From NCBI RefSeq assembly GCF_000226975.2, contig NZ_CP019285.1:1550001-1614000 (forward strand): a stretch of 64,000 nucleotides of DNA. The letters are read 5' to 3'. Each line of letters begins with the position of its first letter. The stretch's first letter is position 1. The notes under the pieces are model-generated. The model had not been told where the DNA came from and searched no databases. It saw nothing but the letters and a program-made list of their open reading frames with translations. The translations under genes and the position numbers were made by a program. This document shows positions 24,202 to 28,802 of this stretch, one piece after another. Origin of the DNA: Halobiforma lacisalsi AJ5. Its GTDB lineage: Archaea > Halobacteriota > Halobacteria > Halobacteriales > Natrialbaceae.

Positions 24202-25833
24202 ATGAAATCTCTCCTCTCAGTCCGCCGTTACACGTCGAACGACGAACTGCCGCTCGGGCTGACGCTGCTGTCGGGAGCTATCGCCGCGGCGATGCTGTTT
24301 CCGCTGACGTGGCTCCTCGTCGAGGCCACCCGGGTCGACACCGGCCGCGCGTGGCAGATGCTCGTCCGGGCCGAGACCCTCGAGATCCTCACGAACAGCC
24401 TCCTGCTAATGACCGCGGTGACCCTCTTTTCGGTGTTGCTCGGCGTTCCCCTGGCCTGGCTCACCGTCCAGACGGACCTCCCCTTCCGCCGGTTCTGGTC
24501 CGTCGTCGTCGCCCTGCCGCTGGTCGTCCCCAGTTACATCGGCGCGTTCGCGTTCGTCTCGGCTTTCGGCCCGCGCGGGGAGTTCCAGTCGATCCTCGAG
24601 CCACTGGGCGTCGAACAACTCCCCGAGATCTACGGGTTGAGCGGCGCGACGCTGGTCATCACGCTCTATACCTATCCCTACGTCTACCTGACGACCCGCG
24701 CCGCACTCCTCTCGTTCGATACGACGCTGCTCGACGCCGCCCGGACGCTCAACCACGACACATGGACCGCGTTCCGCCGCGTCACGCTCCCGCAGATCCG
24801 TCCCGCAGTCGTCGCCGGTGCCCTGCTCGCGGCACTGTACTCCGTCTCCGACTTCGGGACGCCCGCGATCATGCAACTCCCGGTGTTTACCCGCCAGATC
24901 TACGTCGAGTTCAACGCCTGGAACCGGGACTACGCCTCGCTGCTTTCCCTCCAACTGCTCGCGATCGTTCTCGTCGTGCTGGCGCTAGAGTGGCAGGTCC
25001 GTCGGGGCGACTCGAGTCGCGGCGGCGGTGGCGGCGAGGGAACGGGCGGCGGCCCGGTCGTCGAACTCGGCGCCTGGCGCTGGCCGGCGATGGCGCTGCC
25101 CGCGGCCGTGACGGGGATCGCACTCGCGGTCCCGCTGTGGATCCTCGGGCTCTGGCTGGTTACCGCCGATCCGAACGCCAGGCCCGAACTGGCGTTCGAA
25201 CTCGAGTACGCGATGAACTCCGTGCTGGTCGCGGGCGCGGCCGCGCTGGTGGCGGTCCTCGCCGCTCTGCCGGTGGCGTACTTCGCCGCCCGGAACGACT
25301 CGCTGGTCTCGACCGTGCTCGAGCGGGCGACGTACGTCGGTTTCGCGGTGCCCGGGATCGTCCTGGGGCTGGCGCTGGTCTACTTCGCGACCGGCTACGA
25401 GTCGCTGAACCTCTCGTTTGCCCCGACGCTCTACCAGACGCTGCCGCTGTTGATCTTCGCCTACGTGGTCCGTTTCATGCCACAGGCCGTCGGCTCGATC
25501 CGGACCACGACGCTGCAGGTCGACCCCAAACTGGTCGAGGCCGCCCGCACGCTCGGCGAGACGCCGACCCGGACGTTCCGCAAGATCACGCTCCCGTTGA
25601 TCGCGCCGGGGATGACCGCCGGCGCTGCGCTCGTGTTCCTGACGACGATGAAGGAGTTGCCCGCAACGCTGTTCCTCCGGCCGACCGGCTTCGACACCCT
25701 CGTGACCGTCATCTGGCGGGCCCAGGAGGCCGCCTACTTCCAGTACGCCGCGATCCCCGCGCTCATGCTGCTCGTCGTGTCTGGACTCTCGATGGTCGTG
25801 CTCCTCTCGCAGGGGGGCCGTGAGGGCCTTTAA
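24202..25833 (+). CDS. Ferric iron ABC transporter permease (FbpB/HitB type)
   Basis: Membrane permease of 543 residues with about twelve helices in two homologous halves, as in fused FbpB-type iron permeases. Each half has an ATPase-contact EAA loop: AARTLNHDTWTAFRRVTLP in the first and AARTLGETPTRTFRKITLP in the second. A glycine-rich linker with a run of Gly codons joins the halves near residue 275. It would import ferric iron with the FbpA-like lipoprotein at 17456. The gene is divergent from the GMC operon across 80 nt containing operator 5, and convergent with the SRAP gene (stop codons overlap in TTAA). Confidence 0.92.
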   Translation: MKSLLSVRRYTSNDELPLGLTLLSGAIAAAMLFPLTWLLVEATRVDTGRAWQMLVRAETLEILTNSLLLMTAVTLFSVLLGVPLAWLTVQTDLPFRRFWSVVVALPLVVPSYIGAFAFVSAFGPRGEFQSILEPLGVEQLPEIYGLSGATLVITLYTYPYVYLTTRAALLSFDTTLLDAARTLNHDTWTAFRRVTLPQIRPAVVAGALLAALYSVSDFGTPAIMQLPVFTRQIYVEFNAWNRDYASLLSLQLLAIVLVVLALEWQVRRGDSSRGGGGGEGTGGGPVVELGAWRWPAMALPAAVTGIALAVPLWILGLWLVTADPNARPELAFELEYAMNSVLVAGAAALVAVLAALPVAYFAARNDSLVSTVLERATYVGFAVPGIVLGLALVYFATGYESLNLSFAPTLYQTLPLLIFAYVVRFMPQAVGSIRTTTLQVDPKLVEAARTLGETPTRTFRKITLPLIAPGMTAGAALVFLTTMKELPATLFLRPTGFDTLVTVIWRAQEAAYFQYAAIPALMLLVVSGLSMVVLLSQGGREGL

Positions 25834-26540
25834 ACGGGCTCGAGGGGCTCGATCAGCGACGGCTCGTCCGTCGAGGGATCGTTGACCGCCGTCGAAACCG
25901 GATAGGCCCGCATCCCCTCGGCCGGGTACGGCTCTAACAGGTCGCGGACCTCGTCGCCGTCGCCCTCGAGCCACCGCCGTTCGTCGGGGTCGAGGATCAC
26001 CGCCATCCGGTGGTGTAAGTCCGCGACCAGGTCGTTCGGATCGGTCGTGACGACCGTGAACGTCTCGAGCGGGCCGTCCTCCCGTCCGGCGTCGTCGCTC
26101 CCGCCGCCGAAGGCATCCAGCCCCGCCTGCGTCGTCGCCTCGTCCGGCTCCCACCGTTCCCACAGGCCCGCCATCGCGAACGGTCGGTCGTCCTCGAGGG
26201 CGACGCGGTACGGCTGCTTCCCGTCTGCCGTTTCGACCCACTCGTAGAACCCGTCAGCGGGGACGAGACATCGACGGGACTCGTAGGCCTCACTGAAACT
26301 CGGCTTCTCGTCGACCGTCTCGGCGCGGGCGTTGATGAGTCCGCCGCTGTCGTCGTCAGCCCACGACGGGACGAGTCCCCACTCGAGCCGTCGTGCGACG
26401 CCGGGATCGTCGTCGGTGATCACGGGAAGGCGCTGGCCCGGCGCCATGTTGTATCGCGGGGAGAACGAGTCGGGAGCAGTCGCGTCGAATCGCTCCTCGA
26501 AGTCGTCGCGCTCGAGGGTAAGGGTGTACCGGCCGCACAT
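25830..26540 (-). CDS. SRAP/HMCES-family abasic-site-binding protein
   Basis: Protein of 236 residues of the YedK/HMCES family, which shields abasic sites in single-stranded DNA by a covalent bond through the cysteine after the start Met. ATG 26540 is chosen because it places that Cys at position 2 (MCGRYTLT). Other family residues are visible: SPRYNMAPGQ, the Glu in NARAET, and His in HHRMAVIL. Length is normal. The stop overlaps the ferric permease stop; no functional link to it is implied. Confidence 0.93.
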   Translation of the reverse strand: MCGRYTLTLERDDFEERFDATAPDSFSPRYNMAPGQRLPVITDDDPGVARRLEWGLVPSWADDDSGGLINARAETVDEKPSFSEAYESRRCLVPADGFYEWVETADGKQPYRVALEDDRPFAMAGLWERWEPDEATTQAGLDAFGGGSDDAGREDGPLETFTVVTTDPNDLVADLHHRMAVILDPDERRWLEGDGDEVRDLLEPYPAEGMRAYPVSTAVNDPSTDEPSLIEPLEPV

Positions 26541-26642
26541 ACTATACTCATCGACCGACCGAAACAAAGCGTTGTCCGTTCTTTCCGGTAGGTTCCGACA
26601 CCCTCTCCCCCATCCGAAAACGCCAGAACTGGGATGTCAACT

Positions 26643-27951
26643 GTCCCGACCGAATTTCGGGACTTGTCAGTGAACTCGACCTCTATCGCTACCCGGTAGC
26701 GTACGGGGTGAATGCCCGATTCGGCGTCACCGTTCCTGACTTCAGGGCGAGTTGACTGTCGCCCGTCCGCCGTGACGACTGTAGGCCCCGACGGACGAAC
26801 CGTAACCCGACGTTTTTTGCGGCAACGTAATCTGCATTCGCCGTTTCACCACACTGTTCACACTCGAACTCGGATTGTGTCTTTCTATTCCTTCGACACG
26901 TGTGGTTACATCCGGGGCACCGACGACTCGTGTTTTCGGGGGAGACGAACTCGACGCGAATCCCTTCCGCCTTCGCTTTGTATTCTACCAGATCGACGAG
27001 TTGTCGATGCGCCCACTGATGAAACTGCTTTACTGGCGGCGCACGGTCCCGGATGTGTTTCAGATTTTCGAACGCGATGTACTCACAGTCGTACGTCAGC
27101 GCTTCCTCGACGATATCGTTAGCAACTCGGTGTAATACGTCCCTCACATACCGTGACTCTCGGCCACTCATCCGCCGTACCGTCCGGTAAGCGGACTGTG
27201 TTCCTGTTTCGTAGAGGTTTGAACGAACACGTTCGAATTCACGGTGACGATGCCGAAGCTCTCGACCCGACGCGAAATACGCCGTACTCGTCGTCGCGAT
27301 GTTGACGATCCCGAGGTCGACGCCAAGGACTGTCCTGTCCTCGTCGTCAGACATCTTCTCTGCTCGTGGTGTCGGTTTCGGTTTTCGGAACCCGATATGA
27401 AGGTAGTATCCACCGTCCCGTTTGCTTACTGTCGATTCCGTGATTTCCCATCCATCGTCTCGAAGGTACTGGAACTGATACCCCTCTTCGTCCGACGGTA
27501 ATCCGATATCACACCGGATTCGGTCGTCGGTCGTAGCCAACGACACCGTTTCGTCGTCGAACAGCGTCATCGATCGTGTATCGTACGTTATAGTGTCGCT
27601 GGTGAACGTCGGCCGGGAAACCTCGTAGTTCTCGTCGGCTGCTTCGATCTCTGCGGTACCCTCGAGAGCCGCTGCCGCCTGACGAACAGCGAGTACTACG
27701 TGTTGACTCCCCAGATCAGTGCGCGACCGAATCTCGTCGTATACCATCCCCTGGAGAACCGTCGCTCGTGTTTCGTCGGCCTCCCAGCCGATGCGGCTCC
27801 CGACGTTGCACGCGGTTTTCCACTGACTGATCGTTTCCTCAAGCAACTCTTGCTGTTCGTCGGCAAGTACGAGGCGAGTGATCGCTGTTCTCCGCAAGTA
27901 TTCGTCGGCCACTACCAACCCCTGGCTCCGTTTTCCTATTTAAATAATAGG
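26643..27951 (-). mobile_element. IS1341-type element: solitary tnpB between short hairpins
   Basis: A tnpB gene without tnpA is bounded by possible end hairpins: arms GTCCCGA/TCGGGAC at 26643-26663 beyond the 3' end, and CCTATT/AATAGG at 27935-27951 before the gene. IS200/IS605 elements have subterminal hairpins rather than inverted repeats, and the guide-like omega RNA is expected from the tnpB 3' end through the right end (about 26640-26750). The exact borders are not proven. It lies between the SRAP gene and tRNA-Ser. Confidence 0.65.
26689..27912 (-). CDS. tnpB: TnpB RNA-guided nuclease (IS200/IS605 family)
   Basis: Protein of 407 residues, full length for haloarchaeal TnpB. The RuvC-type catalytic residues are all present: Asp in LGVDLGIVNIA, Glu in YIAFENLKHIRDR, and Asp in GETANADYVAAKNVG. 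A zinc finger CPGC...CEQC precedes the last motif. GTG 27912 (VADEYLRRTAITRL) is preferred to TTG 27918. The intact motifs suggest an active enzyme. Codon choice is less GC-biased than the surroundings, as expected for a mobile gene. Family knowledge: TnpB cleaves DNA guided by RNA from the element's right end. Confidence 0.92.
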   Translation of the reverse strand: MADEYLRRTAITRLVLADEQQELLEETISQWKTACNVGSRIGWEADETRATVLQGMVYDEIRSRTDLGSQHVVLAVRQAAAALEGTAEIEAADENYEVSRPTFTSDTITYDTRSMTLFDDETVSLATTDDRIRCDIGLPSDEEGYQFQYLRDDGWEITESTVSKRDGGYYLHIGFRKPKPTPRAEKMSDDEDRTVLGVDLGIVNIATTSTAYFASGRELRHRHREFERVRSNLYETGTQSAYRTVRRMSGRESRYVRDVLHRVANDIVEEALTYDCEYIAFENLKHIRDRAPPVKQFHQWAHRQLVDLVEYKAKAEGIRVEFVSPENTSRRCPGCNHTCRRNRKTQSEFECEQCGETANADYVAAKNVGLRFVRRGLQSSRRTGDSQLALKSGTVTPNRAFTPYATG

Positions 27952-28002
27952 TCGAGTAACTTCTGTAAACACTACTACCCGGAGTGAAATCAATCGAGAA
28001 GA

Positions 28003-28083
28003 CGCCAGGACAGGGATTTGAACCCTGAATCCCAAAGGGAACACGCTTTCCAGGCGTGCGCCTTACCGTTCGGCCATCCTGGC
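28003..28083 (-). tRNA. tRNA-Ser(GGA)
   Basis: Minus-strand cloverleaf: acceptor arms GCCAGGA and TCCTGGC pair fully, followed by discriminator G. The D arm reads GCCGAACGGTAAGGC, the anticodon loop CTGGAAA gives anticodon GGA, an extended variable arm TTCCCTTTGGGATT marks a class II tRNA, and the T arm is CAGGGTTCAAATCCCTG. All match serine tRNA reading UCC/UCU. No intron is visible and CCA is not encoded. Confidence 0.95.
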
Positions 28084-28110
28084 TCGAGTGCACCTAGCCA
28101 CGTCCGTCGT

Positions 28111-28365
28111 TTAACTCTTACTTTTGTCGTCGCCGTGTGCCTCGGTTTCGCCCCCCACACGTGCCGACCGGGCGGCGAGCCGCGGCTCGAGGACGTACGC
28201 GCTGGCGGTCGTCGCGGCGCCGACGAGCGCGGCCACGGCCGCGCCGCGGGGAAGCGTCAACAGGGGCTCGACGAGCAGGGCGTAGCCCTGGACGAGCACC
28301 AGGAACGTCATGAAGCCGACCGCTCCCCACAGGAGGGCGGATTTGGTACGCGGGTCCATTTCCAT
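28111..28365 (-). CDS. Small two-helix membrane protein
   Basis: Protein of 84 residues from ATG 28365 (MEMDPRTKSALLWG). Two hydrophobic stretches are visible, about residues 9-31 (LLWGAVGFMTFLVLVQGYAL) and 40-58. A charged tail follows. It starts 16 nt after the ridA stop on the same strand and is probably co-transcribed. A longer frame from TTG 28389 is less likely. No function can be assigned. Confidence 0.7.
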   Translation of the reverse strand: MEMDPRTKSALLWGAVGFMTFLVLVQGYALLVEPLLTLPRGAAVAALVGAATTASAYVLEPRLAARSARVGGETEAHGDDKSKS

Positions 28366-28381
28366 CGGACTCGAGGAGCCG

Positions 28382-28762
28382 TCAGTCAAGCGAGGCGATG
28401 GCCTCGATCTCTACGCCGACGCCCTTCGGCAGCGCGGCTACCTCGACGGCGCTGCGAGCCGGCGGCTCGGCGTCGAAGTAGTCGGCGTAGGTTTCGTTCA
28501 TCGCGTCGAAGTCCTCGATATCGTCGAGGAACACCGTCACCTTGAGCACGTCCTCGAGGTCGGCTCCCTCTTCCTCGAGGATCGCCGAGAGGTTCTCCAG
28601 TGCCTGCTCGGTCTGGGCCTCGATGGGGTCGTCGTCGAGCAGGTCGCCGTCGGGGGTCATCGGGATCTGTCCGGCGGTAAAGAGAACGTCGCCGTCGTTG
28701 GTCGCCTGGCTGTACGCGCCGACGGCCGCGGGGGCCGCGTCGGTATCAGTGATGCGTTTCAT
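28382..28762 (-). CDS. ridA: RidA-family enamine/imine deaminase
   Basis: Cytoplasmic protein of 126 residues, standard RidA length, which hydrolyses the reactive 2-aminoacrylate/2-aminocrotonate intermediates released by PLP dehydratases. Family phrases include GAYSQATNDGDVLFTAGQIP, DFDAMNETYADYF, and the active-site Arg in PPARSAVEVAALPKGVGVE. It lies downstream of ilvA on the same strand, separated by a hexanucleotide repeat, which matches its role in clearing the product of threonine dehydratase. Confidence 0.95.
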   Translation of the reverse strand: MKRITDTDAAPAAVGAYSQATNDGDVLFTAGQIPMTPDGDLLDDDPIEAQTEQALENLSAILEEEGADLEDVLKVTVFLDDIEDFDAMNETYADYFDAEPPARSAVEVAALPKGVGVEIEAIASLD

Positions 28763-28802
28763 ACCCGGTACCTTTCGGCGAGTGGGCTTAAAGGCAGGCG
28801 GA

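What the first reader, a model, noticed from the sequence alone, without database searches (positions are those of the whole stretch)
26640..28083. Intact solitary TnpB beside tRNA-Ser
All three RuvC acidic residues and the zinc finger are kept although no tnpA is present. Candidate hairpins mark both ends, and the element stops about 50 nt from tRNA-Ser(GGA). A live RNA-guided nuclease kept without its transposase may have a host role.
Basis: partly seen in the sequence, partly recalled or inferred. Interest (0 to 1): 0.5.

Follow-up and report, generated by a model that had tools for sequence, protein, structure and literature searches.

The report
TnpB nuclease aimed at rival tRNA
In salt-loving archaea an RNA-guided DNA cutter sits behind a tRNA gene and carries, as its guide, the matching piece of a different version of that same tRNA, while its own neighbouring tRNA is altered so that it should escape; this looks like a natural counterpart of man-made cut-and-rescue gene drives, not yet tested in cells.

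Summary
The TnpB is real, intact and transposase-less at its locus, but the important thing was missed. Its right-end hairpin unit stops at window 26636, and the next nucleotides, by position the guide of its omega RNA, are a second copy of the 3' end of the adjacent tRNA-Ser(GGA); the TAM-equivalent TTCAA is the tRNA T-loop. The guide matches the other T-stem allele, not the linked one: the linked tRNA differs at guide position 6 by a compensated base-pair swap. Across 17 tRNA-Ser loci, nine guides read CCCAG beside CCCTG tRNAs, seven the reverse; the exception has TTCGA. Extended to tRNA-Thr and tRNA-Arg, the rule held: guides read the common allele, linked tRNAs are recoded (12 Thr and 2 Arg loci). 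Copies without tnpB behind tRNA-Ser match their own allele 46 of 49 times. Resident copies lost the left end (26 of 26) but keep RuvC residues, a covarying omega-RNA helix and purifying selection. Two sister species carry reciprocal cassettes between near-identical flanks. Best reading: a resident, self-immune nuclease haplotype that attacks other tRNA alleles, a natural cleave-and-rescue-like element. Cleavage, spread and host benefit are inferred.

The parts
28003..28083 (-). tRNA-Ser(GGA), T-stem allele CAGGG/CCCTG; the inferred antidote
   Evidence: ARAGORN; Rfam RF00005; the only copy found in the genome
28018..28022 (-). TTCAA of the tRNA T-loop = TAM-equivalent
   Evidence: TTCAA precedes the left end in 27 of 36 type II mobile copies and in 8 of 8 type I copies (the type I search demanded TTC); 22 of 66 unresolved
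28003..28017 (-). own protospacer-equivalent ATCCCTGTCCTGGCG; hard mismatch to the guide at position 6, U.G wobble at position 9
28012..28012 (-). tRNA nt 64 (guide position 6), swapped together with nt 50 at 28026
   Evidence: the only two differences between the tRNA-Ser(GGA) of G000 and of G081 or G083
27937..27944 (-). TATA-like TTTAAATA ahead of tnpB
   Evidence: read; inference
26689..27918 (-). tnpB, 409 aa (likely GTG start at 27912)
26750..26756 (-). GTCAACT inside tnpB: 5' arm of the long-range omega-RNA helix
26636..26668 (-). right end: GACAAG, hairpin 26643-26663, AGTTGAC (3' arm of the helix)
26616..26635 (-). guide by position, ATCCCAGTTCTGGCGTTTTC: partial copy of a tRNA-Ser 3' end, CCCAG allele
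25830..26567 (-). SRAP gene, conserved right flank used for the site survey
   Evidence: Pfam PF02586; survey

Best explanation
tRNA-Ser(GGA), tnpB and the guide form one linked haplotype. TnpB with its omega RNA is an active nuclease programmed against the 3' end of the other allele of the neighbouring, probably essential tRNA gene (TAM = T-loop TTCAA, seed in the T-stem). The linked tRNA escapes because one T-stem base pair that the guide seed reads has been swapped, both bases together, which keeps the tRNA foldable; at a few loci the T-loop reads TTCGA instead, which would remove the TAM. When the haplotype meets a chromosome copy with the other allele (cell fusion or other exchange, in polyploid haloarchaea) the tRNA gene there is cut and repair copies the whole haplotype, so the nuclease and its rescue tRNA spread or hold the site together: a natural cleave-and-rescue (home-and-rescue) like element. 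SHOWN by sequence: guide-allele mirror, recoded linked tRNA, same site across genera, cassette exchange between sister species, selection on TnpB and on the RNA helix, loss of the left end. INFERRED: expression, cleavage, repair copying, spread, essentiality.
For: Mirror at tRNA-Ser: nine guides CCCAG on CCCTG tRNAs, seven CCCTG on CCCAG tRNAs, one match but with TTCGA. Prediction met at tRNA-Thr: of 114 genomes with a match among 125, seven have the recoded T-stem CCCGC, five of them with tnpB behind and guides reading the common CCCGG; seven more guides outside the family do the same; 0 of 29 common-allele loci read have a tnpB behind. Met at tRNA-Arg(GCG): CTCCG in 40 of 50 copies, while the two tnpB-linked tRNAs are minor alleles and both guides read CTCCG. 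26 of 26 loci with own TTCAA have a hard mismatch within guide nt 1-12; 4 of 5 with TTCGA have none. Control copies without tnpB: 46 same allele, 3 other; linked guides 1 and 15; Fisher 6e-11, rows not independent. Swap between sisters. Left end lost 26 of 26. Helix covariation. dN/dS 0.10-0.23. Several lineages.
Against: No RNA, cleavage or transfer data. Recoded tRNA-Thr also occurs without tnpB: 2 of 7 in the family, and most class-wide; 9 of 10 minor tRNA-Arg loci read lack it; nine TTCGA tRNA-Ser(TGA) genomes have no tnpB or right end behind. These may be relics or ordinary variation. The Halorubrum tRNA-Thr pair has dN/dS about 0.45 on few changes. Guides at tRNA-Ser carry an extra C-to-T change at nt 9 or 10 (nt 3 in G035) against both alleles. 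Rows are related by descent; the tree forces at least three label changes for tRNA-Ser and three for tRNA-Thr, not 31 events. How the tRNA 3' end came to be duplicated is unexplained.
Confidence: 0.62

Rival explanations
1. Site defence: TnpB serves the host by cutting incoming integrative elements, plasmids or chromosomal DNA that carry the other tRNA 3' end (for example as an attachment site), guarding an essential tRNA locus.
For: Same immunity requirement and guides; the 3' ends of these tRNAs are insertion hot spots, with partial tRNA copies behind many tnpB-less tRNA-Ser genes and none besides the guide found in the occupied loci.
Against: Elements that use the host's own allele as attachment site would not be cut, since the guide reads the other allele. 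Cassettes change between sister species, which fits competition between haplotypes better. Targets in known viruses or plasmids were not searched for.
Confidence: 0.2
2. By-product: recombination or an integrase duplicates tRNA 3' ends, a TnpB happened to sit beside one copy, and allele differences arose by drift or exchange between species.
For: Duplicated tRNA 3' ends without tnpB are common here; recoded tRNAs without tnpB exist.
Against: Neutral copies keep the own allele (46 of 49) while tnpB guides do not (1 of 16 readable); the copy starts exactly at the right end of the TnpB unit; the rule recurs at three tRNAs; TnpB and its RNA helix are under selection.
Confidence: 0.12
3. Regulation: the mismatched guide lets TnpB bind, not cut, its own tRNA gene or flank and tune its expression, as nuclease-dead TnpB repressors do elsewhere (recalled).
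For: The guide keeps 13 of 15 identities to the own tRNA.
Against: RuvC residues invariant in 18; the mismatch falls where another allele matches; TTCGA loci lack the TAM-equivalent.
Confidence: 0.04
4. Ordinary recent IS1341-type insertion moved by a trans-acting TnpA.
For: Four TnpA genes in the genome; many mobile relatives.
Against: No left end in 26 of 26 linked copies; long branches against the short ones of mobile copies; same site in many genera.
Confidence: 0.02

Closest known systems
IS200/IS605-family TnpB (OMEGA) as retention nuclease and gene drive in plasmids (PMC11870625, passages read)
   Same: TnpB, omega RNA at the right end, guide taken from the flank, attacks the site that lacks the element
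   Different: resident behind tRNA genes, no left end, target is a tRNA gene, linked tRNA recoded, guide persists against another allele
Synthetic Cleave-and-Rescue and home-and-rescue drives (PMC7951863, PMC7968924; search listing with abstract openings only)
   Same: RNA-guided nuclease aimed at an important gene plus a linked recoded, cleavage-resistant copy
   Different: natural, archaeal, TnpB not Cas9, rescue by a T-stem base-pair swap or TAM loss in the native tRNA gene
Homing endonuclease genes and tRNA-targeting integrative elements (recalled)
   Same: site-specific, copied by recombination or restoring the tRNA 3' end
   Different: no intron, intein or integrase; RNA-programmed; the target gene stays in the host in recoded form
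TldR, nuclease-dead domesticated TnpB (recalled)
   Same: TnpB kept without TnpA at conserved loci
   Different: here the RuvC residues are intact

Membership tests
TnpB (guided_TnpB, IS200/IS605) | RuvC plus TNB zinc-ribbon domains | tested here: met
TnpB (guided_TnpB, IS200/IS605) | RuvC D, E, D and four zinc cysteines | tested here: met
   invariant in 18 of 18
TnpB (guided_TnpB, IS200/IS605) | omega RNA from the right end with guide beyond it | tested here: inconclusive
   hairpin and covarying helix; no RNA data
Transposable IS200/IS605 element | left and right ends for TnpA | tested here: not met
   left-end motif in 0 of 26 linked copies, 58 of 66 mobile; no tnpA at the locus
TldR | inactivated RuvC | tested here: not met
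Type V CRISPR-Cas | repeat-spacer array beside the effector | tested here: not met
   no regular array in 25800-28800; the wider window was not examined
Cleave-and-rescue type drive | guide matches a gene of non-carriers | tested here: met
   G000 guide against G083 tRNA 19 of 20 nt, the difference a U.G wobble (read)
Cleave-and-rescue type drive | linked copy is resistant | tested here: inconclusive
   mismatch or lost TAM by sequence; resistance itself not measured
Cleave-and-rescue type drive | cleavage, biased inheritance, essential target | not testable with these tools
   needs experiments; single tRNA-Ser(GGA) copy seen

The most novel reading that the evidence does not exclude
Haloarchaea carry natural RNA-guided cleave-and-rescue drives: TnpB haplotypes that kill or convert rival alleles of essential tRNA genes while a linked, structure-preserving recoded tRNA gives immunity, with reciprocal, mutually attacking haplotypes in sister species, and recoded tRNAs elsewhere as scars of lost drives.
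Probability: 0.5. Interest if true: 0.95.

Novelty: new variant of a known kind. Interest (0 to 1): 0.87.

Why it matters
It would be a natural precedent for a gene-drive design known to me only as an engineered one, show that RNA-guided nucleases shape tRNA sequence evolution, explain why TnpB is kept without TnpA, and offer a simple two-allele cleavage test. No paper describing it appeared in the searches (open-licence PubMed Central only).

Tried and rejected
Rejected: a left border 50 nt from the tRNA (no left-end motif); a CRISPR array; nuclease-dead domestication; Rfam match for the omega RNA (none); bacterial promoter/terminator scan (nothing; not suited to archaea); a conserved in-frame TAG in some homologues (it is only the ordinary stop). 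TTCGA in tRNA-Ser(TGA) as a scar of lost TnpB: nine such genomes read, none with a right end. A class-wide right-end pattern search mostly gave chance hits: of 30 loci examined, the tRNA-linked ones were L286-L290, L293 and L295. The general repeat finder does not list the guide/tRNA repeat, because its mismatches break the seeds. tRNA-Gly was not surveyed; no structure was predicted.

Rows dropped: four of 122 genomes with an SRAP match (G016, G021, G094, G122; paralogue-like hits) were not fetched; 24 of 118 fetched regions held no tRNA-Ser(GGA); L312 and L313 (atypical 5' halves) were left out of the 29 common-allele tRNA-Thr loci; G035 is not in the Fisher table because of an indel; L358 could not be read; G146, G297 and G248 were read after the table.

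Full report
Observation. The ORF at 26689-27918 (-) is an intact TnpB, with RuvC D201/E284/D363 and four zinc cysteines invariant in 18 relatives and Cas12f/TnpB chains as sequence matches in the PDB. It lies between tRNA-Ser(GGA) and an SRAP gene, all on the minus strand. There is no tnpA here, though four Y1 transposase genes occur elsewhere in the genome.

Same site in many genera. A blastn of the locus against other TnpB loci showed tnpB between tRNA-Ser and SRAP in several genera. I therefore fetched 118 SRAP regions (of 122 genomes with a match among 125). 94 hold tRNA-Ser(GGA), 17 of them with a tnpB within 600 bp. These TnpBs fall into a 69-100% group (9 loci, one decayed), a group about 50% identical to ours (7 loci) and G013 (53%).

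The guide. In mobile relatives the conserved right end stops at CAGTTGAC or a close variant, after which sequences diverge. In the window the next letters are ATCCCAGTTCTGGCGTTTTC (26635-26616). That is a copy of the 3' end of tRNA-Ser, beginning in register after the T-loop TTCAA. TTCAA is also what precedes the left end in 27 of 36 type II mobile copies and in 8 of 8 type I copies (where the search itself demanded TTC); 22 of 66 stayed unresolved.

The mirror. The nine loci of our group have T-stem CAGGG/CCCTG and guides with CCCAG; the seven loci of the second group have CTGGG/CCCAG and guides with CCCTG; G013 matches its own tRNA but has T-loop TTCGA. Both T-stem alleles are common in tnpB-less loci (49 T, 27 A, one other). 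Copies of the tRNA 3' end that occur without tnpB match the own allele in 46 of 49 cases, against 1 of 16 readable tnpB guides (Fisher 6e-11; rows share ancestry, so this is not a strict probability).

Predictions tested. If the linked tRNA must escape the guide, other tRNA-linked TnpBs should sit behind recoded tRNAs and carry the common allele as guide. tRNA-Thr(GGT): 114 of 125 genomes matched and nearly all read CCCGG; seven read CCCGC with the opposite base swapped too. Five of these seven have a tnpB behind; three guides read the common allele exactly over 14 nt (G003, G005, G030), G011 with one change, and G013 matches the ATTCCGG allele of its genus mate G014 over its first 12 nt. None of 29 common-allele loci read has a tnpB behind. 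Class-wide, 36 of 391 genomes match the recoded pattern; among the loci read outside the family, seven more have a tnpB with a common-allele guide (G249, G168, G297, G146, G208, G133, G147) and G383 has a stub. Two of these, G208 and G133, appear to be the Halorubrum species of L204 and L205. tRNA-Arg(GCG): CTCCG in 40 of 50 copies of 49 genomes (194 searched); Natronomonas gomsonensis (L264, CGCCG) and G248 (CGCTG) have tnpB behind, and both guides read CTCCG. Of ten minor and ten common tRNA-Arg loci read, one and none have tnpB. Own TTCAA goes with a hard mismatch within guide nt 1-12 in 26 of 26 loci, own TTCGA without one in 4 of 5; G146, G297 and G248, read later, also mismatch.

Results that do not help. 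Most recoded tRNA-Thr and minor tRNA-Arg genes have no tnpB behind them, and nine genomes with TTCGA in tRNA-Ser(TGA) show no tnpB or right end there. They may be scars of lost elements or plain variation; I cannot tell which.

Cassette exchange. G000 and G081 are about 97% identical up to the tRNA, whose genes differ only at the two bases of T-stem pair 50:64. The next 1.4 kb (tnpB and guide) are about half identical, and from SRAP on identity is about 95% again. The genera of G026/G027 and G097/G098 also hold both cassette types. G083, of the window's genus, lacks tnpB and carries the allele that the window's guide reads (19 of 20 nt, the difference a U.G wobble; read). The window genome itself has no nearer match to the guide behind TTCRA than its own tRNA.

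Still functional. dN/dS is 0.10-0.23 in nine pairs of tRNA-Ser copies, below that of SRAP in each pair (the Halorubrum tRNA-Thr pair is about 0.45 on few changes). A seven-pair helix joins GTCAACT inside tnpB with AGTTGAC at the right border; it covaries (GTCGACT/AGTCGAT, GCCAACT/AGTTGGT) in linked copies, and the terminal hairpin keeps pairing with different stems in most copies. The left-end motif is gone in 26 of 26 linked copies and present in 58 of 66 mobile ones. In a tree of 92 TnpBs the linked copies sit on long branches in several lineages, with at least three label changes each for tRNA-Ser and tRNA-Thr.

Interpretation. The simplest account is that these TnpBs cut, that a guide equal to the own tRNA allele is not tolerated, and that haplotypes survive only with an escaped tRNA. 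Whether they are kept as a drive, as a barrier against foreign DNA at the site, or both, is open. I prefer the drive-like reading because of the shared site across genera and the reciprocal cassettes in sister species. TnpB as a drive in plasmids has been shown by others (PMC11870625, passages); linking a nuclease to a recoded rescue gene is known to me only from synthetic designs (PMC7951863 and PMC7968924, listing with abstract openings). In the passages of PMC12558985 on archaeal circular omega RNAs that I saw, tRNA targeting is not mentioned.

Noticed in passing
L081, L084, L107, L140, L407 and others, behind tRNA-Ser(GGA), tRNA-Ser(TGA), tRNA-Arg(GCG): In many tnpB-less genomes the tRNA 3' end is followed by units of about 105-160 nt, each ending in TTCRA plus a copy of the tRNA 3' end, sometimes in tandem. 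Nature unknown.
   Followed up: partly
L404 (G015), about 460 nt behind tRNA-Ser(TGA): A right end with a tRNA-like guide but no tnpB match between it and the tRNA: a solo omega-RNA unit or a relic.
   Followed up: partly
L331 (G073), L330 (G033): Recoded tRNA-Thr without tnpB; G073 also has a partial tRNA-Ser copy of the other allele with the guide-like C-to-T change.
   Followed up: partly
L187/L188 and L294: A mobile TnpB copy, nearly the same in two genera, lies within or beside a cluster of tRNA genes.
   Followed up: no
L147 (G013): A tRNA-Ser-linked TnpB whose guide copy extends beyond the tRNA into the flank with high identity, apparently a young duplication; the same genome has a second TnpB behind tRNA-Thr.
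   Followed up: partly
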